From assembly GCF_017114985.1 (NCBI RefSeq), contig NZ_JABXKP010000049.1, positions 165,643 to 229,642 on the forward strand: DNA of 64,000 bases. The letters run 5' to 3'. The translations under genes were made by a program, and so were the position numbers. The stretch's first letter is position 1. Each line of letters opens with the position of its first letter. Source of the DNA: Nostoc sp. JL33. GTDB taxonomy: Bacteria; Cyanobacteriota; Cyanobacteriia; Cyanobacteriales; Nostocaceae. Below are positions 31,726-42,566 of this stretch, one piece after another. Below the pieces are notes generated by a model, which saw only the letters and a list, made by a program, of their open reading frames with translations, ran no database searches and had not been told where the DNA came from.

Positions 31726-34269
31726 ATGGAACCAGATAAACTAGGCCGTTTTAAGGAGTACGGCGAATTCATCCTCCGAAAGATAGATTCTGTGCCCCAC
31801 TACCCTTCCAAACAAGAAGATTGGGTTCCAGCTAGTCTTGACGACTGTCTCCTTCGTCTGCGGTCAGCTGCCCAGAAAACTGTAGACCTTGCAACTTCGA
31901 CTGTCAAAATTGGTGTGATGGGGGAATTCAGCAGTGGGAAAACCTTACTTTTAGGCAGTCTCATTGGATATGCAGATGCTTTGCCAGTCAGTGAAAATCC
32001 GACTACAGGTAATGTTACTGCCATACATATTATACCACAAGATGAATTTACAACCACTCAATTAAGTAATTTTACTGTAGAGTATCTTTCTCATAAAGGA
32101 GTACATGAGTGTCTACGCTTCATGCTAGGGGAAGCCAATAAGCGGACAACAGCAGCCGGGCTTCCTCCTATACCTGTATCGAAACTCAACTCTGGGAAGG
32201 ATATTATAAGCTGGTGTGAAGAAGCATGGAATAGTAGTAACAATTTGGAGCTACGTTATTTACTCCGGGAGTTGGTATTATTCCTGCGGGCTTATCACGC
32301 CTATGGGGAAGTTATGTGTGGTGTCCGCTACCAGATTGATGCTACCACTGCCCGCGAGGGGCTACAGCTAGTCGAACAGCCAATGGCAATCCAAACTCTG
32401 AAATTTGAGGATCTACCTCCAGCACACATCCAATTACCAAGTCCACCTCAGAGGCTGCCAACAAAGTTATTGCAAAACAGTTTCCCACTCATCCGCCGTG
32501 TAGATATCGATGTAAAAATATCACGGGAAATTTGGGATTTTGCAGACGCAGCTAAATTTATTCTCATCGACTTTCCAGGATTGGGGGCTGCTAATTCCGG
32601 GGCTAGGGATACGTTTTTGTCACTGCGGGAATTGGCAGAAGTACAGACAATTTTGGTATTGCTAAATGGTAAATCTCCTGGTAGCGATCGCGCCAATAAA
32701 ATCTTTACGATGATGCAGCAGCAGCGACCGGGACAAGACCTGAAAGATTTAATTCTCGTCGGTGTGGGTCGCTTCGATCAACTACCCCTAGATAGCGAGG
32801 GTGGCGAAAGAGAACTTGACCAACTGATTGAAGATAGCCCAGATTTGCAGGAAGAAACCGTTTTCCAAAAACTCAAAGTTCTGCAAACTACCATTGATGG
32901 TGCAGAAGCGTTTACAACCCAAAAAGACCGCATCGTTTTACTGTCACCACTGTTGGGACTGGCCGAATTAGCAAAACGTTCTAGTACAGTCAAAGCAGGC
33001 TCACCAGAGTTTTTGGCTAACTTAGATTATCCTGATTACCTAGATCGGTCTAAACGGCTACAAGAGAAATGGGAGCTATTAAGTGAACAGCTACTAGAAT
33101 CTGACGCTCGTAGCTATTTGGGCAGACAGCTAGGTTACTTTAGTCAAGATGGGGGACTTAGTAAGCTGCGGGAATTGATTCAAACCCACGTAGCTACTCA
33201 TGGTCTAAAGCAATTGTATGAAGATACTAAAAGAGCTGCTGATGTGGTGAGTCAGCAACAAGATCACTTGAAAGACATCATAGATGAAATTCACGAGCAA
33301 GGTATCCCCACAGGCGATAGTCCCGCTTTTATGGAATTGCGCTTTGTGGTCGAAAGCTTGGATAAAATCTATAGGAATTTTCAAAAAGATTTAGGGAAAG
33401 AACCACTCAAAGACCGACGCGGTGTTGTCGTCAGCGATGTAGTAAAAGACGAACTCACTTTTAGAATCCTCAATTGGAACCAGTGGACTTTACTCTTCAA
33501 CAAAGCGAACAATGGAGCGATCGCTCTGGCAGAATCTAAAGGTGCAGCCGGGAAATTATTTGATCGAGGAAACCGTGTCAATAGTTCCCTTCCGACTAAG
33601 AGCGATGATTTTTATCCAGTATTTGAGAAAACCGTTAAAGAAGTAGAAGATTTTGCCCGCGATCGCATCCATCAAGCAGTGGTAGATTTGTTGAATCAAT
33701 TGTCAATTTTTGTAGCCCTAGAACGCGAACAATTGCAGGCATTTTTCCACCCAGAGATGGAACAAGAAATCGAAGAAAAATTTGGTTTTGAAGATGCTGA
33801 TCTCTTTTACAAATTATTACTAGGATGCGACCCTAACGAATGGAAAGAAGCAATCATCTCCGAAATTACTAGTAAAGACAAAACCGTTGCACCCGAAATC
33901 ATCTTCCCTTTAGCGCGTCAAGACGAGAAACACAACGTTGGTCAAATCTTTGACTGGGCACCAGAGAAAAGCCAAGCTTTACCCAGATCGAGCAACCACC
34001 AACTTTTTGTACTGCGACTCCGAGATGAAATTACTGCTAGCGCCAGTCTTCATCTTGTGCAGTATGTTAGCGAAGTTAATCAGCGAATTAATTCCGAACT
34101 AGAAGGTATTTTGGATCAAGTTATTCCTAGTTTGCAAAACCTTTCAAAGAAAGAAACTTTGCTAAGATATTTGGCGGCTGGAGAATTGCCATCTGAGATA
34201 CCAATTCCTACTTGGTTGCAGATTCTTTCAGAAATTTCGGCTGTTTCTTACTCAGATGATTTTATCTGA
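31726..34269 (+). CDS. Dynamin-like large GTPase (SrfC-like architecture)
   Basis: An 847-aa P-loop GTPase. The ORF opens at ATG 31705, but ATG 31726 is preceded by AGGCGG and is preferred. The G1 loop GEFSSGKT is at residues 66-73, a likely G2 threonine lies in NPTTGNVTA, and G3 is DFPGLG at about 282. These are spread over some 300 residues with large inserts, as in dynamin-like proteins. The C-terminal 450 residues are helical, with coiled-coil-prone stretches (VVSQQQDHLKDIIDEIHEQG). No transmembrane segment is seen. In the same direction downstream are a DUF2887 gene, an Hsp70-like ATPase and a 364-aa protein. Size and pairing recall SrfC with SrfB of proteobacteria, a link inferred from architecture, not alignment. 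Its role might be membrane remodelling or a conflict response. Confidence 0.8.
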   Translation: MEPDKLGRFKEYGEFILRKIDSVPHYPSKQEDWVPASLDDCLLRLRSAAQKTVDLATSTVKIGVMGEFSSGKTLLLGSLIGYADALPVSENPTTGNVTAIHIIPQDEFTTTQLSNFTVEYLSHKGVHECLRFMLGEANKRTTAAGLPPIPVSKLNSGKDIISWCEEAWNSSNNLELRYLLRELVLFLRAYHAYGEVMCGVRYQIDATTAREGLQLVEQPMAIQTLKFEDLPPAHIQLPSPPQRLPTKLLQNSFPLIRRVDIDVKISREIWDFADAAKFILIDFPGLGAANSGARDTFLSLRELAEVQTILVLLNGKSPGSDRANKIFTMMQQQRPGQDLKDLILVGVGRFDQLPLDSEGGERELDQLIEDSPDLQEETVFQKLKVLQTTIDGAEAFTTQKDRIVLLSPLLGLAELAKRSSTVKAGSPEFLANLDYPDYLDRSKRLQEKWELLSEQLLESDARSYLGRQLGYFSQDGGLSKLRELIQTHVATHGLKQLYEDTKRAADVVSQQQDHLKDIIDEIHEQGIPTGDSPAFMELRFVVESLDKIYRNFQKDLGKEPLKDRRGVVVSDVVKDELTFRILNWNQWTLLFNKANNGAIALAESKGAAGKLFDRGNRVNSSLPTKSDDFYPVFEKTVKEVEDFARDRIHQAVVDLLNQLSIFVALEREQLQAFFHPEMEQEIEEKFGFEDADLFYKLLLGCDPNEWKEAIISEITSKDKTVAPEIIFPLARQDEKHNVGQIFDWAPEKSQALPRSSNHQLFVLRLRDEITASASLHLVQYVSEVNQRINSELEGILDQVIPSLQNLSKKETLLRYLAAGELPSEIPIPTWLQILSEISAVSYSDDFI

Positions 34270-34322
34270 GCTAACTCAGAAAATGACTGATTGCGATCGG
34301 GTACGGATATGAGGATGTATTT

Positions 34323-35186
34323 GTGAGACGTGATGCGATTTTTTATACAATTTTCAAGCGTGTCCCAGGATTGTTTTTCGAGTTAGTAGAACAACCACCA
34401 GCAGAAGCTAGTAGCTATCGCTTTGAATCAGTTGAAGTTAAAGAACCAACATTTCGGATTGATGGGGTATTTTTACCTCCACCTGATGCAACATCTCAGA
34501 TGATCTTTTTTGCTGAGGTACAATTCCAAAAAGCGGAAAGTGCGGTCTTGGGGTCTCCCCAAGTAGAGCAACTTTCCAAGACAGATGAGTTATTGTACCA
34601 TCGGTTTTTCTCAGAATCCATGCTGTATATGTATCGTAACCCGTCGCTTTACGATGACTGGTACGGAGTAATTATTTTACAGTCTCGCAGCTTGGAACCG
34701 GAAAAAACCACTATTCACAGATCATTACTGAACAGTTCCCAAGTACAACGAATTTATTTAGATGAGTTAGGTAGTCCTGATGAGCAAAAAGTAGGTATCA
34801 GTTTGATGCAGTTGACTATTGCCTCAGAGACTCAAATGGTGCAAGAAGCGAAACGTTTAATTGAGCGGGTGCAACAAGAACAGATAACTGTCTTAGCTAA
34901 GGAGGAGATAATAGATGTAATCACAACGATTGCAGTTTATAAATTTGCCAACTTAAGTCGTGAAGAGGTAGAGGCTATGTTAGGAGTTAAGTTAGAAGAA
35001 ACTCGAGTTTATCAAGAAGCTAAACAAGAGGGGATGGAACTAGGATTAGAACTAGGAATCCAACGAGGACGAGAACAAGCAAAACTTGAACTTGTACCTC
35101 AGTTCTTAGCCCTTGGTATGTCGATGGAAGAGGTTGCCCAATTACTTAATTTAACTATCGAACAAGTAAGGCTTGCAGCTAAGTAA
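34323..35186 (+). CDS. DUF2887 (Rpn-like PD-(D/E)XK) protein with repeat-derived insert
   Basis: A 287-aa DUF2887 protein, a cyanobacterial family related to Rpn/PD-(D/E)XK nucleases. The N-terminal core includes FRIDGVFLPP and FFAEVQFQK, the likely nuclease D...ExQ/K residues. The tail is charged and repetitive (EAKQEGMELGLELGIQRGREQAK) before a closing helix-turn-helix-like segment (MEEVAQLLNLTIEQVR). Between EVQFQK and DELLYHRFFSE, usually contiguous in this family, lie about 18 extra residues encoded by a palindromic dispersed repeat. The gene sits between the GTPase and Hsp70-like genes and may be an intruder in that cluster. Nuclease activity is a family inference. Confidence 0.85.
   Translation: MRRDAIFYTIFKRVPGLFFELVEQPPAEASSYRFESVEVKEPTFRIDGVFLPPPDATSQMIFFAEVQFQKAESAVLGSPQVEQLSKTDELLYHRFFSESMLYMYRNPSLYDDWYGVIILQSRSLEPEKTTIHRSLLNSSQVQRIYLDELGSPDEQKVGISLMQLTIASETQMVQEAKRLIERVQQEQITVLAKEEIIDVITTIAVYKFANLSREEVEAMLGVKLEETRVYQEAKQEGMELGLELGIQRGREQAKLELVPQFLALGMSMEEVAQLLNLTIEQVRLAAK
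34533..34586. repeat. Palindromic repeat inserted in frame in the DUF2887 gene
   Basis: The segment begins GCGGAAAGTGCGG and ends AACTTTCCAAGACAGAT, with a central hairpin TTGGGG-TCT-CCCCAA. The same ends bound the 99-bp element at 31232-31330 (GCGGAAAGTTGCG...AACTTTCCAAGACGGAT). It is 54 bases long and leaves the frame open. Confidence 0.8.
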
Positions 35187-35242
35187 TCAAAACAATTACT
35201 GGTTATAAATTTGCCAACTTAAGTCGTGAAGAGGTAGAGGCG

Positions 35243-35518
35243 ATGTTTGAAATTAATTTACAAGAAACTAGGGTTTATCGAGAAGCTAAAGAAGAAGGAC
35301 GACAAGAAGGACTAAAACAAGCACTAGAAGAAATACGAGAAAAAGGACGAGAACAAGGAATACAACAAGGACGAGAACAAGCAAAACTTGAACTTATACC
35401 TCGGTTCTTAGCTTATGGTATCTCGATAGAAGAAGTTGCCCAGTTACTGAATTTAACTATCGAAAAAGTTGAACAAGTAAGACTTGCAACTGAGCAAGAA
35501 TCTTCGACATCAACTTAG
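35243..35518 (+). CDS. Partial duplicate of the DUF2887 C-terminus
   Basis: A 91-aa frame that repeats the C-terminal third of the preceding gene (ETRVYREAKEEGRQEG, GREQAKLELIPRFLAYGISIEEVAQLLNLTIEKV). The DNA similarity begins at 35183, right at the stop of the first copy (GTAATCAAAACAATTAC against GTAATCACAACGATTGC), and includes the 28-base identical string TTATAAATTTGCCAACTTAAGTCGTGAA before the ATG. The copy lacks the nuclease core and is in another frame relative to the parent. It may be a degenerating duplicate, or a truncated protein able to pair with the parent through the coiled tail. Confidence 0.6.
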   Translation: MFEINLQETRVYREAKEEGRQEGLKQALEEIREKGREQGIQQGREQAKLELIPRFLAYGISIEEVAQLLNLTIEKVEQVRLATEQESSTST

Positions 35519-35897
35519 TAACTGCCCTAATTTTCATAGCGATGCCTAGTTTGGGTTACGCCTACGTCCTTTCTATATAAAAGCGTAGCCCAACGTAGAT
35601 ATCGCGCCAAATAAAAAAGCCAGTGCTAAAGAGAATCAGTGATACAAGACCAACGATTAAAAGTCTTTACCACAAGTAAGTAGAGCGGTGTGAATAATTC
35701 AAGGTTTGTAGTGAGGGCTTCAGCCATCATTTGAGGACTAAAGTCCTCACTACGAACTAATCTCAAGATTTTTTACATTACTTAATCTAGTTTGATTTAT
35801 TCTCACGGACTTACTTATCCTCTAAATTTGTCATTTTATGATACAACACCACAGTTTTTAGTCGGCTATAAAACAAACAACAGAAAGTGATACTATA
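35519..35897. repeat. Intergenic region with two dispersed repeats
   Basis: At 35539-35609 there is a GCGATGCCTAG...GGGTTACGCCTACG / AGCGTAGCCCAACGTAGATATCGC repeat. At 35708-35753 there is an inverted repeat of the GTAGTGAGGACTTTAGTCC type (with three mismatches), related to the one at 60264-60323. No gene is seen. Confidence 0.65.
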
Positions 35898-38873
35898 ATG
35901 AACCCTTTTCAAGTCACCAAATATAGTGATCAAGAACCAAGCGAGAAACAACAAAAAAGATTTCCAGGGTGGTTTGCTTTAGATTTTGGTACGTCGAATT
36001 CGACAGTCACACTTTTCGATCCAATTGAAGTACCGATCGCAGAAATTTTACCCAAAGAACAAGAAATACGCTTACGCGATCGCTTATCACAATGGCTAAG
36101 TTCTCCCGCCTCAGTGGCTTTACCAGATGTCAGCAATGATGATTGGGAAAAGTTTATCGCAGAAATTAGCAAAAACCTGGAAATAGAACCCAGCCGATTG
36201 AGTGAAGTCTTTGAAAGTGACAATAAAGAGCGATTTTTGGAAGCAATTCGCCAAATTGAGCTTTCTTTAGGAAACAGCGAGAGGTTCCGCCGTGCTGTCA
36301 GCAAAAAACTTTACCAAATCTATCATGAGGTGTTCCGTGTTCCTACCCTAGAGTCGCAAAATCTGATCCCAGTTGTGCTGGATATCGATCGCCGCGATAC
36401 GGAAATTCCTAGCGAGTCGGAAATTTCGCAGTTAGGAGACTTAAAACTGCGGATGGGTAGGGAAGCTAGAGATAACAGAAAAAAAGCGATCGCTCAAGGT
36501 ACAAGCAGTTCTTTAAAGGAAATTATCAGCAGGTTTCATCATTCACCCAAACGCTATTTTGGTCAGGAGCGATCGTTTTCAGTTATTTTGGATGGTGAAG
36601 AAGAAACAATTACCGCAAATCAACTGATTCAATCTGCTTGGGCGCATTTAATCGAGTTAACTGAAGATTATCGCCAACGCGCACGACGCAGATTTTCAGA
36701 AGGAAATTTTTTGACAGCAGTTGTCACTTACCCAACTGTCGCCCCACCGGTTGTTCGCAAGGAAGTTAGGGAACTGGTTGAACAGTTGGGGATCGATGAT
36801 GTGCAAACTGCTTATGATGAAGCCGTTTCCGTGGCGATATTCTTTTTATGGCGAGAATTTGGCGGTAATCTCAACATTGGTATTGAGTCATTCAAAACCC
36901 GTTGTCATCAAGCAGGAAACAAATGGTCACAAAATGTCCTCGTCTTGGACATTGGTGGGGGAACCACAGACTTAGCTTTAATTGAACTCACCTTAGAAGA
37001 TAAAACCCCTACCTTTACCGACTATGAAGACCGAGGTTTAGGAGGACGTTACTATAAACTCACCCCCAAACTATTAGGTTCATCTGGTCATTTGCAATTA
37101 GGTGGTGAGTTAATTACACTGCGAATTTTTAGATTATTAAAAGTTGCGATCGCAGACTTTTTGTTGACAGCAGTAACAACAGGTGATATTGAAAACGAAA
37201 AGCTAGAAGATTTAATTAACTCTGAGTTAAACGAGCGGTTCTTAGAACAAGGAAAATTCAAAAGTGGCAGTCTTTTAAAATGTCTGGACAAAGAGAATCC
37301 CGAAGGTGATATCGCTTACAAAGATGCGCTTGATACTGCCGAGAAAGTATTGCCTACCCGTTGGCAACAAGCACCCCAACGCCTGCAATCTTTTTATATT
37401 CTCTGGGATCATGCAGAAGCAGCTAAACTGAAACTGGGACAAAAGCCACCAACAGATAATTCTCTATTAACCTTCACACTTTCTGAGCAGCAAATTTCCG
37501 AACTGCTCACCCAAAGCGCCGTTAAATTGCAAGTCAATGATCCAAATAGCATCTGCGTTACCCTAGATAACCAGCAATTTGAACGAGCCGCCGCTTCCGG
37601 TATTAAAGAAGCGATTGGTATTGCCAAAGGATTAATGGAAAGTCGTTTGCGTCCCGATGATCTCACCAAAGATTTTTGGAATTCCCAAAAAGTTGATTGG
37701 TTAATTTTGTCTGGTAAAACTTGTAATCTCGATATAGTGCAGCGCCAAATCTACCAGGAATTTAGTAAGTCTCCATATTTTGTCTGGAATCCAGAACGAA
37801 TTACCTTTGTGCTGGAATTTACTAAGCTAGCCACCTCCGCCGGTGCTTGCTATGCCGAGAAACTGCGAAGATTGAGATTCGATCCAGAAGAGTCTAAAAG
37901 CTTGCTGCGTAAGGGAGCCAACCAGCTAGAAATTGATGTCAAAAACCTATTTTATTATTTGCCCTGCAACTTCAAACGCAAAACCCAAAGCAACGATTTG
38001 TTAACTATATTCAAAGCTGGACAAGAACTCTATCAACTCGCACCTTGGGAAACTGTCGCCAAAGTTCGTACTCAATGGCAAGGCATACAATTAACTAATA
38101 TCATCTATCGTCAAGACTACGAGGATGGAGATTTACGACTTTGGGGTAGCTTTGACGGCAAAAACCTGATGAAGAAGCTAGGAATGGAAGAAGTAGAGTT
38201 TCTGAAAAAAATCAAAGTCCAGTTTGAGATTGACCAAACCCTGGAATTTAATGTGTTGCTTTGTCAGGGGAATCCCCATTATTTAATTGATATTCCTGGT
38301 ATTGATTTGGGATCGGTAGTTTCAGAAACATCAGCGCTATTTACTGATGGTAAATTGAACTGGAATATTGCAGTGGAGCGCTTCAATAAAGACTTGAACG
38401 ATGGTGATATTGCCGTCAATGTTATTGAGTCAGCAACTGTTGATCAACCAGATGCCTATCATCTTGTATTTGAAGTAGGAAATGATGGTAGTAGAAGGTT
38501 TCAAAAATTTCACTATTTGCGCGATGGGGTAACGCAACCAGGAAGCGGGTTAATTAGTAATCCTTTACCTCCCTTCCCGCAAACTGGCCAGCACACTTTC
38601 TATGTTTACCAAACAGATGCCGAAACCAACTGTAAAAAATGGATACGAATTGGCGCACTCAGCAAACCAGATGTAACTACCGATTACCCTTGCCAATATC
38701 GTGTAACTCTCGATGATCAAGGTATTCTGCGGATGCACGCTGGTGAAGTCCCTTACTGGACATCAAAAAGTCAGGAATGCCTAAAAGAAGAGGGATGCGT
38801 TTATGTTGCTGAATTAGAGTTGCAGCCCAACGAAGTTGATAAAGAACGCGATCCATTTTGTGGCATACATTAA
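35898..38873 (+). CDS. Hsp70-like ATPase, SrfB-like
   Basis: A 991-aa protein with an actin/Hsp70-type ATPase fold. Phosphate-1 loop DFGTSNST is at residue 29, phosphate-2 loop DIGGGTTDLALIEL at 351-364 and the adenosine loop LILSGKTCN at about 602. A long insert separates the first two, and about 330 residues follow the ATPase part, rich in beta strands towards the end (YQTDAETNCKKWIRIGAL). It is much longer than DnaK (about 640 aa) and lacks a recognisable substrate-binding domain. Length and motif spacing fit the SrfB-type group, often encoded beside a large GTPase, as here. Function unknown; a chaperone-like switch working with the GTPase is a reasonable inference. Confidence 0.8.
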   Translation: MNPFQVTKYSDQEPSEKQQKRFPGWFALDFGTSNSTVTLFDPIEVPIAEILPKEQEIRLRDRLSQWLSSPASVALPDVSNDDWEKFIAEISKNLEIEPSRLSEVFESDNKERFLEAIRQIELSLGNSERFRRAVSKKLYQIYHEVFRVPTLESQNLIPVVLDIDRRDTEIPSESEISQLGDLKLRMGREARDNRKKAIAQGTSSSLKEIISRFHHSPKRYFGQERSFSVILDGEEETITANQLIQSAWAHLIELTEDYRQRARRRFSEGNFLTAVVTYPTVAPPVVRKEVRELVEQLGIDDVQTAYDEAVSVAIFFLWREFGGNLNIGIESFKTRCHQAGNKWSQNVLVLDIGGGTTDLALIELTLEDKTPTFTDYEDRGLGGRYYKLTPKLLGSSGHLQLGGELITLRIFRLLKVAIADFLLTAVTTGDIENEKLEDLINSELNERFLEQGKFKSGSLLKCLDKENPEGDIAYKDALDTAEKVLPTRWQQAPQRLQSFYILWDHAEAAKLKLGQKPPTDNSLLTFTLSEQQISELLTQSAVKLQVNDPNSICVTLDNQQFERAAASGIKEAIGIAKGLMESRLRPDDLTKDFWNSQKVDWLILSGKTCNLDIVQRQIYQEFSKSPYFVWNPERITFVLEFTKLATSAGACYAEKLRRLRFDPEESKSLLRKGANQLEIDVKNLFYYLPCNFKRKTQSNDLLTIFKAGQELYQLAPWETVAKVRTQWQGIQLTNIIYRQDYEDGDLRLWGSFDGKNLMKKLGMEEVEFLKKIKVQFEIDQTLEFNVLLCQGNPHYLIDIPGIDLGSVVSETSALFTDGKLNWNIAVERFNKDLNDGDIAVNVIESATVDQPDAYHLVFEVGNDGSRRFQKFHYLRDGVTQPGSGLISNPLPPFPQTGQHTFYVYQTDAETNCKKWIRIGALSKPDVTTDYPCQYRVTLDDQGILRMHAGEVPYWTSKSQECLKEEGCVYVAELELQPNEVDKERDPFCGIH

Positions 38874-38909
38874 CTGGAGTGATCATAGCCTCACGCAAAT
38901 GCATTAAAC

Positions 38910-38989
38910 CTCTGCGTTCCTTTGCGCCAACTTTTGCGCTCCTGGAGCGTTTAAAAAATTAATGTTTTTAAACCCAAAGGAACGCAGAG
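38910..38989. repeat. Inverted repeat between Hsp70-like and third cluster gene
   Basis: CTCTGCGTTCCTTTG (38910-38924) is perfectly matched by CAAAGGAACGCAGAG (38975-38989). The loop carries CTCCTGGAGCGTTTAAAAAA. It belongs to the common dispersed-repeat text of such genomes and could attenuate transcription into the next gene. Confidence 0.7.
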
Positions 38990-39075
38990 TAAACGCATAG
39001 GGGCGCAGAGTTTTGCCAAATTGAATTCGCTACGAATTAATGATCACATACAGGTAATATTTGGAAGTGATATTC

Positions 39076-40167
39076 ATGCAGCACTTGCATCAGCTATTAG
39101 AAATAAAAAACTCGGAATTAGCCCGGTTACTGCGGTTGAGCCTGTATGGACTAGAGGCTACCTTAAATCAGGCTCGCACAGAATTTCCGCTAGATCCAGG
39201 AGCTAAGGTATGCGATGATGTGCTGCAAGAACTTCATAGCCTGTTGCAACCTGCGCCCCCACAGCAAAATACTGGTTGGGAAGATGCGCCAGATGATTTA
39301 AAACTAAGTCAACTCCGGGAAGCTTTCGATTCTGACTCAGAACTTAGTTATTATCTGGGTAATTCCCAACTGCAAAGCCAAACAGATTCTGATTTATGGA
39401 ATGAGATTCAACGCAAACTGCTGCGAGTTCCAGAGGATTTGGCTGCATCTTGGCGATCGCGCACCTTGGATATGGCTCAAGAAGTTGGTGCGATCGCAGA
39501 TCATTCTAATACCTTTCAACTTCCGTTTATCCGCGATGAAATTATCTACCCCGGTCTTAGTGGTACTATTCAAACTCAGGGATTGAGCTTGTCTCAACAA
39601 GGACTTTTAAATTATAAAGTTACTCAAGATAATACATCAGATATATTAGCAGGATTCCTATATTTATATCTAAAATTGATTGAAATTGACCCGGATTTAC
39701 ATCATGCCTTAAAGAGCGTTTTTAGCTTCGATGTTATCTCTTTACACTCCAAACCAGAACAGCGCCATCAATATATTGATGCTTTAAGCGATCGCTTCCA
39801 ACGCACCAAAAAAACTGAGGAAAATACTGATCCTCTATCAATTCTACGTGCCTGGATTGACATGGACGAAGCGATACATTCCCTAGTCTTTATACCACCG
39901 GCTGAACGCTATTCTTGGTGGGGAAAGCTACAACATGAATCACGACGCATCCTGAAAAAAGTCACTGATCAGGCAAATAATGCAGGTAATGAAGTGCGAA
40001 TTCGCCAATTATCGGGACTTTATGCAGATATCTGTGCTTTATCTAAGGATGACTTACAACTAGACTGTGGTGGTATTCCTGGCGAAGTCTTAACTTGTCT
40101 TCGGGTATATGCGCGAATTAATCAGGAAGAATCTCCAGGTCGTGTAATATTTCGCTCATCACGGTAG
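39076..40167 (+). CDS. Unknown protein, third member of the GTPase/Hsp70-like cluster
   Basis: The track starts at a TTG (39061); the ATG at 39076 gives 363 aa and is preferred (MQHLHQLLEIKNSELARLL). The protein looks soluble and helical, with a central part of shorter hydrophobic segments (PFIRDEIIYPGLSGTIQTQGLS) and a C-terminal helical half (DALSDRFQRTKKTEENTDPLSILRAWIDMDEAIH). No known motif is recognised. By position it would take the place of SrfA in a SrfABC-like set, but sequence evidence for that is lacking. A terminator hairpin follows 39 bp after its stop. Confidence 0.65.
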   Translation: MQHLHQLLEIKNSELARLLRLSLYGLEATLNQARTEFPLDPGAKVCDDVLQELHSLLQPAPPQQNTGWEDAPDDLKLSQLREAFDSDSELSYYLGNSQLQSQTDSDLWNEIQRKLLRVPEDLAASWRSRTLDMAQEVGAIADHSNTFQLPFIRDEIIYPGLSGTIQTQGLSLSQQGLLNYKVTQDNTSDILAGFLYLYLKLIEIDPDLHHALKSVFSFDVISLHSKPEQRHQYIDALSDRFQRTKKTEENTDPLSILRAWIDMDEAIHSLVFIPPAERYSWWGKLQHESRRILKKVTDQANNAGNEVRIRQLSGLYADICALSKDDLQLDCGGIPGEVLTCLRVYARINQEESPGRVIFRSSR

Positions 40168-40205
40168 GGTAATTGCGGATTTTTCGCAAGTTTTCTAATT
40201 CTTGA

Positions 40206-40257
40206 GATTATCAGGCAAGGCAGACAATTTTGCTAATCCCCGCCTTGCCTCATAATC
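40206..40257. terminator. Bidirectional terminator hairpin
   Basis: GATTATCAGGCAAGGC (40206-40221) pairs with GCCTTGCCTCATAATC (40242-40257) apart from one C-C mismatch. It sits between convergent genes, the third cluster gene and the Hlip gene, and may end both transcripts, though T-runs are weak. Confidence 0.7.
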
Positions 40258-40281
40258 TAATGAAGGTAAAAACGTTTAAAT

Positions 40282-40461
40282 CTAGAGGATGCCCCAGAAG
40301 TGTAAAATCCCTTGACCAGAAAAGGCTTCAAGTAGAACGACAGATAAAAAACCAATCATTGCAAAACGACCGTTCCAGTTTTCGCTCTGAGGAGTGAAGC
40401 CCCAGCGCAAAGCATTAGGATCTTCTGGAACCGAAAGCGTAGTCTTCTTGACGTCTGCCAT
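40282..40461 (-). CDS. High-light-inducible protein (Hlip)
   Basis: A 59-aa protein too short for the ORF track. It begins MADVKKTTLSVPEDP and carries the chlorophyll-binding helix signature ENWNGRFAMIGFLSVVLLEAFSGQG, with the ExNxRxAM motif of the light-harvesting-complex superfamily, and ends HFWGIL. Hlips bind chlorophyll and carotenoid, associate with photosystem II assembly complexes or ChlG, and dissipate energy under light stress. The ATG lies about 9 bases after a GGAG (CTCGGAGTATTATTT). It stands alone, convergent with the GTPase cluster. Confidence 0.93.
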   Translation of the reverse strand: MADVKKTTLSVPEDPNALRWGFTPQSENWNGRFAMIGFLSVVLLEAFSGQGILHFWGIL

Positions 40462-40686: not shown

Positions 40687-41088
40687 TCAGAAGGCAGAAG
40701 GCAGAAGTTGAACCCGATCAGAAAACTTTTCTGCAAACTTGCGATCAAAGGTGATTACTTGAACTTGCTCTTGAATTGCGGCGGCAACAAACACCGCATC
40801 ATAAAAAGAATGGTTTTTCTGTACTGCTAGCTCTAGCGCAGTATCTCGAATATCAATAACAGGAATAATTTTAGTTACCAATGATTCCGCATCTTTCAAA
40901 ACCTCAAGCCCAATAGTTAGCGGTAGCTGTCTAAATACAATCCATTGCCATACAACATTACCCAATTCAGCAAAGAAAGAATCGGGAACAATAATTTGTT
41001 CCGCTCTTTCTAAAGCAGAAAGTGCTTGCTCATGTTGAGATTCTACACGTAACAAAGCATACACGAAAACCATCGTATCAATCACCAT
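40687..41088 (-). CDS. PIN-domain ribonuclease toxin (VapC-like)
   Basis: A 133-aa PIN-domain protein. The ORF in the track is longer, but the ATG at 41088 overlaps the antitoxin stop (TGATG) and starts the domain directly (MVIDTMVFVYALL). Four acidic residues expected in the active site are present: Asp4, Glu41 (FFAELGNVVW), Asp97 (SFYDAVFVAAA) and Asp115 (ITFDRKF). VapC toxins cleave tRNA or rRNA with Mg2+ or Mn2+. Which RNA this one cuts is unknown. It is translationally coupled to the upstream gene. Confidence 0.88.
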   Translation of the reverse strand: MVIDTMVFVYALLRVESQHEQALSALERAEQIIVPDSFFAELGNVVWQWIVFRQLPLTIGLEVLKDAESLVTKIIPVIDIRDTALELAVQKNHSFYDAVFVAAAIQEQVQVITFDRKFAEKFSDRVQLLPSAF

Positions 41089-41303
41089 CAAAGTCGTCCT
41101 TGTTCTTTCCACTCTTGCAGTTGGCTGCTCGACTGAATCGGCAATATCTCCCAACGTTTACGGATTCGAGCGATCGCTGCTTTTCTTGTTGACTCATTTG
41201 CTCCCTTCACTTCTGCCAGCAGGTAGCTAATTAACCTCAGCCGTGCTGAGTTTGAGAGGTCTTTCGTTTGATTCATCAGTTCTTGTAGCTGTTCTTGACT
41301 CAT
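41088..41303 (-). CDS. Putative antitoxin of the PIN toxin
   Basis: A 71-aa helical protein (EQLQELMNQTKDLSNSARLRLISYLLAEVK) ending in a charged tail (RKRWEILPIQSSSQLQEWKEQGRL) that could wrap the toxin. Its TGA shares one base with the toxin ATG. No AbrB, RHH or Phd motif is evident, so the DNA-binding class is unassigned. The call rests on position and size. Confidence 0.7.
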   Translation of the reverse strand: MSQEQLQELMNQTKDLSNSARLRLISYLLAEVKGANESTRKAAIARIRKRWEILPIQSSSQLQEWKEQGRL

Positions 41304-41720
41304 TTAGTGCTCCTTAATGGCATCCCGAATATCTTGTAAAATGTTGTGATAAAATTTCCCGTTGGTCATCAAAGCTTTTTATCTCATCTCATTCCATCAT
41401 TTTCTCTCATCCCTTGCTAAATCTCTGCCTCCAACGGGAGCCAAATTGCCTCCGCATTACCCAAAGGTTTCGAGTAATTTTCCCTTTAGCTTCTGGTTTA
41501 ACTCACTTTTTGCGTAGTTTAACAAATCTTCTAGACTCGCAACCGAATTAAGGACTTGGCGGCCTTGCGTCCGAACTCATGGTGGAAGCATTAACCTCAG
41601 TTACGCTACAGGAGCAGACAATGAAAGCATTAATGGTGATTTAGTCAGAGCATACAACAATAGTTTTTAGCAAACAAATTGAGTGTTTCTATTACCCTAA
41701 GTGTGACATTTATACGAATT
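41304..41720. other. Intergenic region with possible gene remnant
   Basis: No intact gene is seen. On the minus strand, 41576-41457 encodes a protein-like stretch without a start (GRQVLNSVASLEDLLNYAKSELNQ, ending LLETFG and stop), perhaps the end of a broken gene. The region also has C/T-rich text (CTCATCTCATTCCATC) near 41380. Confidence 0.35.
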
Positions 41721-42566
41721 ATGCTCAAAAGTCCCCTACGATATCCTGGTGGTAAGTCGAAAGCAATAAATCAAATAGTCGAATATTTACCAGAGAGCTT
41801 TTCAGAATTTCGAGAGCCTTTTGTCGGTGGTGGTTCTGTATTCATTTATTTAAGACAAAAGTTCCCTAATCTAAAGATTTGGATTAACGATTTAAACCGC
41901 GAACTCTTCTTATTCTGGAAGTTTGCCCAATCTGATTTATCTAAGTTAGTTAAAGAAATTCGACATATTAAAGTTAAATATACAGATGGCAAATTACTCT
42001 TTGCAGAATTAACAAGTGTAGATGTCAACAATTTATCTGATTTTGAAAGAGCCGTTCGCTTTTTTGTCCTCAATAGAATTACTTTTTCAGGAACTGTAGA
42101 ATCAGGTGGCTTTTCCCAAGAAGCTTTTTATAAAAGATTTACTGATTCTTCAATAGAACGATTAGAAAAATTAGAATATATTCTGGACAAAAATGTTCAA
42201 ATTACTAATTTGGATTACAGCCACCTATTAAAATCAGAAGGGGAAGATGTATTTATATTTTTAGATCCGCCATATTTTAGTGCTACAAAATCAAAACTAT
42301 ATGGTAAAGACGGTGACTTGCACACTTCTTTTGAACATCACAGATTTGCTAACCTTTTGCAACAATGTCATCATCGCTGGCTAATTACCTACGATGACTC
42401 ACCGCAGATTCGAGAAAATTTTCAATCGGCTAATATCTCAGCATGGGAATTACAGTATGGGATGAATAACTATAAGCAGAGTGGTGCGGCTAAAGGAAAA
42501 GAGTTATTCATTACTAACTACGAAGTTCAACGGAATTTAGACAAAATCGCATCTTCTATTGCATAG
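41721..42566 (+). CDS. D12-class N6-adenine DNA methyltransferase (Dam-like)
   Basis: A 281-aa DNA adenine methylase; the ATG at 41721 is used because MLKSPLRYPGGKSKAI is the normal start of the family (motif X). The SAM-binding motif is FREPFVGGGSVFIY and the catalytic motif DPPY lies at 182-185. Order X-I-IV is the alpha class that includes Dam and phage DpnM-type enzymes. Its target is unknown; a GATC specificity would modify every HIP1 site, but this is speculation. No restriction gene is adjacent, so it may be an orphan. Its last 40 bases overlap the convergent epimerase gene. Confidence 0.88.
   Translation: MLKSPLRYPGGKSKAINQIVEYLPESFSEFREPFVGGGSVFIYLRQKFPNLKIWINDLNRELFLFWKFAQSDLSKLVKEIRHIKVKYTDGKLLFAELTSVDVNNLSDFERAVRFFVLNRITFSGTVESGGFSQEAFYKRFTDSSIERLEKLEYILDKNVQITNLDYSHLLKSEGEDVFIFLDPPYFSATKSKLYGKDGDLHTSFEHHRFANLLQQCHHRWLITYDDSPQIRENFQSANISAWELQYGMNNYKQSGAAKGKELFITNYEVQRNLDKIASSIA

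What the first reader, a model, noticed from the sequence alone, without database searches (positions are those of the whole stretch)
31726..40167. Dynamin-like GTPase, Hsp70-like ATPase and an unknown third protein: a SrfABC-like cluster in a cyanobacterium
Seen: an 847-aa P-loop GTPase (GEFSSGKT, DFPGLG), a 991-aa Hsp70/actin-fold ATPase (DFGTSNST, DIGGGTTD, LILSGKT) and a 363-aa protein without known motifs, all in one direction, closed by a terminator hairpin. Known: proteobacteria carry SrfA-SrfB-SrfC, with SrfB a long protein of this type and SrfC a large P-loop protein. Inferred: the sizes and pairing match, so this could be a cyanobacterial counterpart acting as a two-NTPase switch in toxin delivery, membrane repair or phage defence. 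I know of no characterised cyanobacterial case.
Basis: partly seen in the sequence, partly recalled or inferred. Interest (0 to 1): 0.75.

Follow-up and report, generated by a model that had tools for sequence, protein, structure and literature searches.

The report
Dynamin–Hsp70-like three-gene cyanobacterial module
A membrane-remodelling-type (dynamin-like) GTPase, an Hsp70-like ATPase and a third, unnamed protein are encoded side by side in essentially every sampled member of the window's cyanobacterial family (mostly heterocyst-forming genera) and, in the same order, in a few actinobacteria (a myxococcus contig holds the last two genes), so they are very probably one unstudied machine, only remotely related to the SrfB/SrfC virulence proteins.

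Summary
The 847-aa GTPase (31726-34269), the 991-aa Hsp70/actin-fold ATPase (35898-38873) and the 363-aa third protein (39076-40167) are real genes under purifying selection. The trio sits in the same order in 42 of 49 named relatives: many heterocyst-forming genera, three non-heterocystous filamentous ones, Nocardia and Streptomyces. A Myxococcota contig has the last two genes, its GTPase on another contig end. In a 386-genome cyanobacterial sample all 43 genomes with a match belong to the window's own family. The fold model puts the GTPase among dynamins (SynDLP, BDLP). The Hsp70-like protein's closest Pfam family is SrfB, but over ~75-120 of 992 positions and mostly below the cut-off; the cyanobacterial GTPases do not match SrfC. 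SrfABC membership is therefore not shown. The third protein weakly resembles the Hsp70 exchange factor GrpE. In Nostoc KVJ20 a second GTPase-Hsp70-like pair occupies the variable-effector slot of a MoxR-vWA-iSTAND conflict operon. Best reading: a dynamin membrane machine controlled by a dedicated Hsp70-type ATPase. Function remains inferred.

The parts
31726..34269 (+). Dynamin-like GTPase, 847 aa: G1 GEFSSGKT (66-72), G3 DFPGLG, G4-like GRFDQLP, long helical stalk
   Evidence: ORF; Dynamin_N 30.4 bits over cut-off 27; model pLDDT 84 with top PDB matches SynDLP 5.5e-14 and BDLP 1.7e-10; invariant motifs across phyla
34323..35186 (+). DUF2887 / Rpn-type nuclease-like gene, 287 aa: insertion seen only in the window's genus, not part of the conserved module
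   Evidence: PF11103 E 3e-67, TIGR01784; absent from other genera
35243..35518 (+). 91-aa fragment, partial tandem duplicate of the DUF2887 gene's 3' end
   Evidence: direct repeats D1/D2/D4, 79-86%; tblastn overlap
35898..38873 (+). Hsp70/actin-fold (ASKHA) ATPase, 991 aa, distant SrfB relative; in most relatives about 130-180 aa longer at the N terminus
   Evidence: ORF; SrfB best Pfam match 22.9 bits, cut-off 27.1, 16/16 members; motifs conserved across phyla; N-terminal loss
39076..40167 (+). Third protein, 363 aa, no family; helical with C-terminal beta part; weak GrpE resemblance
   Evidence: no Pfam hit; homologues next to the Hsp70-like gene in cyanobacteria, Myxococcota, Nocardia, Streptomyces; model pLDDT 88; Foldseek top hit GrpE E 0.04
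40205..40258 (+). Strong hairpin after the third gene, possible terminator
   Evidence: RNA fold z -4.0; not found by the T-tract consensus scan
38890..39020 (.). Palindromic element between Hsp70-like and third gene
   Evidence: DNA fold z -4.5; two inverted arms

Best explanation
The three genes encode one machine: a dynamin-superfamily GTPase that binds and remodels membrane, controlled by a dedicated Hsp70-type ATPase that, with the third protein as its cofactor (perhaps a GrpE-like nucleotide-exchange factor), loads, holds or disassembles the GTPase according to a trigger such as envelope damage or infection. In heterocyst-forming cyanobacteria it is a vertically inherited core function, most likely membrane surveillance or repair along the filament; elsewhere it is a rare accessory module. 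Shown: gene identity, dynamin-like fold, ASKHA motifs, conserved adjacency and order in more than one phylum, purifying selection. Inferred: physical complex, direction of control, membrane target, trigger.
For: Same order GTPase-Hsp70-like-third in 42 of 49 named loci (third gene counted), including Nocardia and Streptomyces, and in a further sampled actinobacterium. In Myxococcota Hsp70-like and third are adjacent and the GTPase lies on another contig end. In a 386-genome cyanobacterial sample the 43 matching genomes are all of the window's family and none lies outside it; shared chromosomal flanks. Distances of the three proteins correlate r = 0.96-0.99 and dN/dS is low. GTPase model matches SynDLP, BDLP, IniA, mitofusin and dynamin. 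Complete ASKHA motif set. Third protein: top Foldseek hit is GrpE, with mitochondrial GrpEL1 lower, and a 12-residue stretch (IEIDPDLHHALK) matches the GrpE signature (FDPNLHEAVM) above all 60 shuffles.
Against: No biochemical data. GTPase-to-dynamin TM-scores are low (0.2-0.35 by query length), the shapes being elongated. No membrane-spanning or strongly hydrophobic segment in the GTPase. The GrpE link is weak: TM 0.18/0.34, no profile significance, and the C-terminal part does not align above shuffles. In the window itself the genes are split by insertions, so one transcript is not assured. One genome has decayed copies of the GTPase and Hsp70-like genes with no third found (G334), so the machine is dispensable there.
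Confidence: 0.45

Rival explanations
1. The trio is itself a conflict (immune, abortive-infection) system of multicellular bacteria: on infection the Hsp70-like ATPase releases the dynamin GTPase, which seals, lyses or partitions the infected cell. It would be a cousin of the GTPase-centric and MoxR-vWA systems of Kaur et al. 2020.
For: In Nostoc KVJ20 a second GTPase-Hsp70-like pair is the end of an operon EAD1/VMAP-M1/iSTAND - MoxR - vWA, with the GTPase fused to a ~210-aa domain that in 20 of 20 sampled loci follows a vWA gene and in ten scanned is fused to FGE-sulfatase (6), KAP NTPase, VanY, pentapeptide or FHA domains. The Nocardia copy lies near another Hsp70 and a DO-GTPase2 gene. Rare in sampled actinobacteria (2 of 297), as an accessory system would be. 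B. subtilis DynA gives phage resistance (PMC8844932 abstract).
Against: The core copy is family-wide, usually single-copy, often syntenic and strongly conserved, unlike typical patchy defence genes; no nuclease or toxin domain in the conserved trio; PADLOC gives only a weak LeoA P-loop match (16.8 bits) and a chance-level candidate; no match in plasmids or PHROGs. The KVJ20 fusion is one case.
Confidence: 0.28
2. The module is a cyanobacterial SrfABC: GTPase = SrfC, Hsp70-like = SrfB, third = SrfA, acting in export or delivery as proposed for proteobacterial SrfABC.
For: SrfB is the best Pfam match, found in all 16 members, and its profile matches nothing else in 146 cyanobacterial genomes; Streptomyces Hsp70-like protein 26.5 bits over 122 residues and Nocardia GTPase a weak SrfC match at the P-loop; lengths close to SrfC profile 878 and SrfB profile 992.
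Against: SrfB match limited to about 75-120 positions and mostly under cut-off; SrfC profile not matched by any cyanobacterial member at E<=1 or genome; third protein unmatched; no secretion system recognised among the conserved neighbours.
Confidence: 0.12
3. A filament-specific housekeeping role: remodelling of septal or thylakoid membranes, for example during heterocyst differentiation or septal-junction assembly.
For: Found in the window's family and in none of the other sampled cyanobacteria; three non-heterocystous filamentous genera have it too; other hosts include filamentous Streptomyces and Nocardia.
Against: Rare in actinobacteria, so not needed for filaments in general; the held septal-junction paper does not mention dynamin, DnaK or GTPase; one decayed copy pair.
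Confidence: 0.15

Closest known systems
cBDLP 'chaperone clade' (cyanobacterial dynamin-like proteins with a DnaK-domain gene downstream; PMC5827413, 2018)
   Same: dynamin-domain protein followed by an Hsp70-type gene in cyanobacteria; probably includes this family
   Different: that paper describes only the pair, does not mention a third gene, non-cyanobacterial relatives or SrfB in the section read; its gene list is in a supplement that could not be read here
SynDLP (Synechocystis Slr0869) and BDLP1 (Nostoc punctiforme)
   Same: fold: G domain plus long helical bundle; best solved matches
   Different: 12-14% identity; no Hsp70 partner mentioned in the passages read; different P-loop extension (LLLGSLI here, L/INALL/I in most cyanobacterial dynamins)
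SrfB / SrfC (PF07520 / PF10139) of the srfABC operon
   Same: large ASKHA-type protein next to a large P-loop protein; weak SrfB match around phosphate-2
   Different: no SrfC match in cyanobacteria, third protein matches no named family, module is core in a family of free-living cyanobacteria
GTPase-centric and MoxR-vWA ternary conflict systems (Kaur et al. 2020, PMC7159879)
   Same: GTPase with HSP70 (and GrpE) genes; enriched in multicellular bacteria; KVJ20 copy embedded in an iSTAND ternary operon
   Different: their GTPases are DO-GTPases, not dynamins; the GTPase-centric systems are reported as nearly absent from cyanobacteria; the word dynamin does not occur in the paper
LeoA dynamin (PADLOC LeoA, NF041922)
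   Same: bacterial dynamin; P-loop region matches weakly
   Different: 12-17 bits only; the partner genes here are an Hsp70-like ATPase and an unknown protein

Membership tests
Dynamin superfamily | dynamin-type G domain (PF00350) | tested here: met
   30.4 bits over cut-off 27; 16 of 16 members match
Dynamin superfamily | helical bundle/stalk after the G domain | tested here: met
   model with helices 438-459, 478-525, 533-555, 630-671, 758-808; Foldseek 5.5e-14 to SynDLP, low TM-score
Dynamin superfamily | membrane binding and GTP-dependent remodelling | not testable with these tools
   needs biochemistry; no strongly hydrophobic segment by hydropathy
Hsp70/actin (ASKHA) ATPases | phosphate 1, connect 1, phosphate 2, adenosine and connect 2 motifs | tested here: met
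   DFGTSNST, DEAVSVAIFF, DIGGGTTD, LILSGKT, KLATSAGAC, conserved across phyla; motif assignment by eye
SrfB (PF07520) | whole-protein score over Pfam's 27.1-bit cut-off | tested here: not met
   window protein 22.9-25.1 bits; 3 of 146 genomes reach cut-off
SrfB (PF07520) | similarity over most of the 992-position profile | tested here: not met
   only positions about 508-623 align
SrfC (PF10139) | profile match of the GTPase | tested here: not met
   no match at E<=1 in 16 members, none in 146 genomes; Nocardia member 14.8 bits
srfABC operon | SrfA-like third protein | tested here: inconclusive
   no NCBIfam or Pfam match; no SrfA sequence compared directly
GrpE | PF01025 profile match of the third protein | tested here: not met
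   no Pfam hit at E 0.1; hhalign probability 1-2% for the full profile
GrpE | GrpE fold | tested here: inconclusive
   top Foldseek hit, E 0.04, prob 0.80, TM 0.18/0.34
MoxR-vWA iSTAND ternary system | MoxR, vWA and iSTAND genes in the operon | tested here: not met
   the KVJ20 genes find no relative in the window by tblastn; met only by the KVJ20 second copy
PADLOC anti-phage systems | match to defence profiles | tested here: not met
   only weak LeoA P-loop 16.8 bits and PDC-M61B 11.6 bits

The most novel reading that the evidence does not exclude
A two-NTPase membrane machine not described as a system in the papers searched: a bacterial dynamin operated by its own Hsp70-type ATPase and a GrpE-like exchange factor, fixed in the core genome of a family of mostly heterocyst-forming cyanobacteria and, in at least one Nostoc, plugged as the variable effector into a MoxR-vWA-iSTAND conflict operon.
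Probability: 0.3. Interest if true: 0.85.

Novelty: new variant of a known kind. Interest (0 to 1): 0.6.

Why it matters
Hsp70 chaperones act around membrane-coat and dynamin cycles in eukaryotes (own knowledge), but I know of no characterised bacterial dynamin under dedicated Hsp70-type control; this trio offers a strictly conserved, testable case in genetically tractable Anabaena/Nostoc. It adds a third gene and further phyla to a pairing noted only in passing in 2018, explains the SrfB resemblance as distant kinship, and the KVJ20 fusion links it to the conflict systems proposed for multicellular bacteria.

Tried and rejected
PDB sequence searches with single proteins and profiles: no significant relatives. 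Plasmid tblastn: none. PHROGs: none. Rfam in the region: none. DUF2887 genes as part of the system: rejected, genus-only insertion. SrfC search in cyanobacteria: nothing, but no positive control rang. Myxococcota survey too small to judge (5 genomes). GrpE as a proven family for the third protein: rejected as unproven; only a 12-residue match exceeds shuffles. The held heterocyst core-genome and septal-junction papers do not mention the genes under the names tried.
Full report
What is there. The three genes are real and intact. The first encodes an 847-aa GTPase from ATG 31726. The second encodes a 991-aa protein with a full set of Hsp70/actin (ASKHA) motifs. The third encodes a 363-aa protein with no family. 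Between the first two lie a DUF2887/Rpn-type nuclease-like gene (PF11103, E 3e-67) and a partial tandem copy of its end. Both are found only in the window's genus among the loci compared, so they are an insertion. A palindromic element separates the second and third genes and a strong hairpin follows the third.

Conservation. In 386 cyanobacterial genomes, 43 have the Hsp70-like gene. All 43 belong to the window's own family. Genomes without a match appear to be listed by kinship and begin at 'same order', so no family member seems to lack it; this is read from the list order, since most rows without a match are not shown. The profile search gave the same picture. In one genome (G334) the GTPase and Hsp70-like genes are decayed and no third was found. 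In 30 loci the GTPase lies upstream and the third gene downstream of the Hsp70-like gene, except where the short fetched stretch shows only the DUF2887 genes on the GTPase side. The chromosomal flanks (a histidine kinase upstream, a D12 methylase downstream) are shared by nearly half of 40 wider neighbourhoods. dN/dS values are 0.085-0.10 (GTPase), 0.05-0.08 (Hsp70-like) and 0.18-0.23 (third), and the distance matrices of the three proteins correlate at r 0.96-0.99 over 39 loci; shared vertical inheritance alone would also give this.

Outside the family. A scan of 85,462 genomes returned 49 loci with organism names (the pattern limit was reached, so more exist). They include many heterocyst-forming genera and the non-heterocystous filamentous Okeania, Hormoscilla and Oscillatoria princeps. 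They also include a Myxococcota assembly (36% identity), Nocardia tenerifensis (31%) and Streptomyces sp. VRA16 (29%). The GTPase lies before the Hsp70-like gene in 48 of the 49 and the third gene after it in 42. Absences are partly contig ends; Calothrix NIES-3974 and the KVJ20 second copy appear to lack the third gene. In Nocardia, Streptomyces and a further actinobacterium the order is the same. In the Myxococcota genome the GTPase is on a separate contig end. In actinobacteria the module is rare: 2 of 297 genomes, one of them the seed. The tree of the Hsp70-like protein separates a Nostoc-type and a Calothrix/Fischerella-type cyanobacterial group; Nostoc KVJ20 and Calothrix PCC 7103 each carry an additional divergent copy.

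What the proteins are. The GTPase passes the Dynamin_N cut-off. Its model (pLDDT 84) finds SynDLP (5.5e-14), BDLP (1.7e-10), IniA, mitofusins and dynamins, with low TM-scores. The Hsp70-like protein matches SrfB in all 16 members (best E 4e-6), ahead of HSP70 and MreB. In 146 cyanobacterial genomes the SrfB profile matches this gene alone at E 0.001. The match is confined to about positions 508-600 of 992 and reaches the cut-off in 3 genomes. The SrfC profile matches no cyanobacterial GTPase at E<=1 and no genome; the Nocardia GTPase gives 14.8 bits at the P-loop. Homology to SrfB is therefore likely but remote, and SrfABC membership is not met. Most relatives have an extra N-terminal domain of about 130-180 aa on the Hsp70-like protein, lost in the window's clade and several other lineages.

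The third protein. Its model is confident (pLDDT 88, pTM 0.73), though only the best of five models scored so high. No PDB structure passes E 0.001. The best hit is GrpE (E 0.04, prob 0.80), with mitochondrial GrpEL1 lower. A stretch IEIDPDLHHALK aligns to the GrpE signature FDPNLHEAVM and beats 60 of 60 column shuffles, but nothing else aligns. GrpE is the exchange factor of Hsp70, so the idea fits the neighbourhood; it remains a lead.

A link to conflict systems. In Nostoc KVJ20 the second copy follows, with overlapping or nearly touching genes, an EAD1/VMAP-M1/iSTAND protein, a MoxR-like AAA+ and a vWA_CoxE protein. This is the layout of the iSTAND ternary system of Kaur et al. 2020 (PMC7159879). 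The GTPase there has an extra ~250-aa N terminus. That domain occurs in 32 of 367 cyanobacterial genomes. In all 20 loci inspected it directly follows a vWA gene. In ten scanned it is fused to FGE-sulfatase (6), KAP NTPase, VanY, pentapeptide or FHA domains, so it appears to mark the variable-effector slot, filled in KVJ20 by the dynamin. The Nocardia trio lies close to another Hsp70 and a DO-GTPase2 gene. That supports a conflict connection for accessory copies; the window's copy has no such neighbours.

Known work. A 2018 review (PMC5827413) defined a cyanobacterial dynamin 'chaperone clade' with a DnaK-domain gene downstream; this is probably the same family, but the supplement could not be read. 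No third gene is mentioned there. None of the papers searched describes the trio.

Verdict. A real, widespread and unstudied three-gene module. The most likely role is a dynamin membrane machine under Hsp70-type control. An immune role is the strongest rival. The SrfABC label should be dropped in favour of 'distant SrfB relative'.

Noticed in passing
34323-35518: DUF2887/Rpn-type gene plus a partial tandem duplicate inserted between GTPase and Hsp70-like gene, where other genera encode the Hsp70-like protein's N-terminal domain; remnants of different lengths in related genomes (L002-L006).
   Followed up: partly
L106:476-10961: Nostoc sp. KVJ20: operon EAD1/iSTAND - MoxR - vWA - GTPase (with slot domain) - Hsp70-like; third gene absent.
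   Followed up: yes
L166-L185: A ~210-aa domain that follows vWA genes in cyanobacterial MoxR-vWA systems and is fused to varied domains (FGE-sulfatase, KAP NTPase, VanY, pentapeptide, FHA); no Pfam match to the domain itself in ten scanned.
   Followed up: partly
L143:14983-18787: A pair of further dynamin-family genes a few kb downstream of the trio in an actinobacterium (G598).
   Followed up: no
40288-40461 (-): Small protein MADVKKTTLSVPEDPNALRWGFTPQSENWNGRFAMIGFLSVVLLEAFSGQGILHFWGI, recognised by eye as a high-light-inducible (chlorophyll-binding-like) protein.
   Followed up: no
40687-41154 (-) and 41679-42566 (+): PIN-domain protein (possible toxin of a toxin-antitoxin pair) and a D12-class adenine methyltransferase; the methyltransferase is shared by 18 of 40 trio neighbourhoods.
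   Followed up: partly
L050: One family genome (G334) with the GTPase and Hsp70-like genes decayed and no third gene found: a natural loss.
   Followed up: partly
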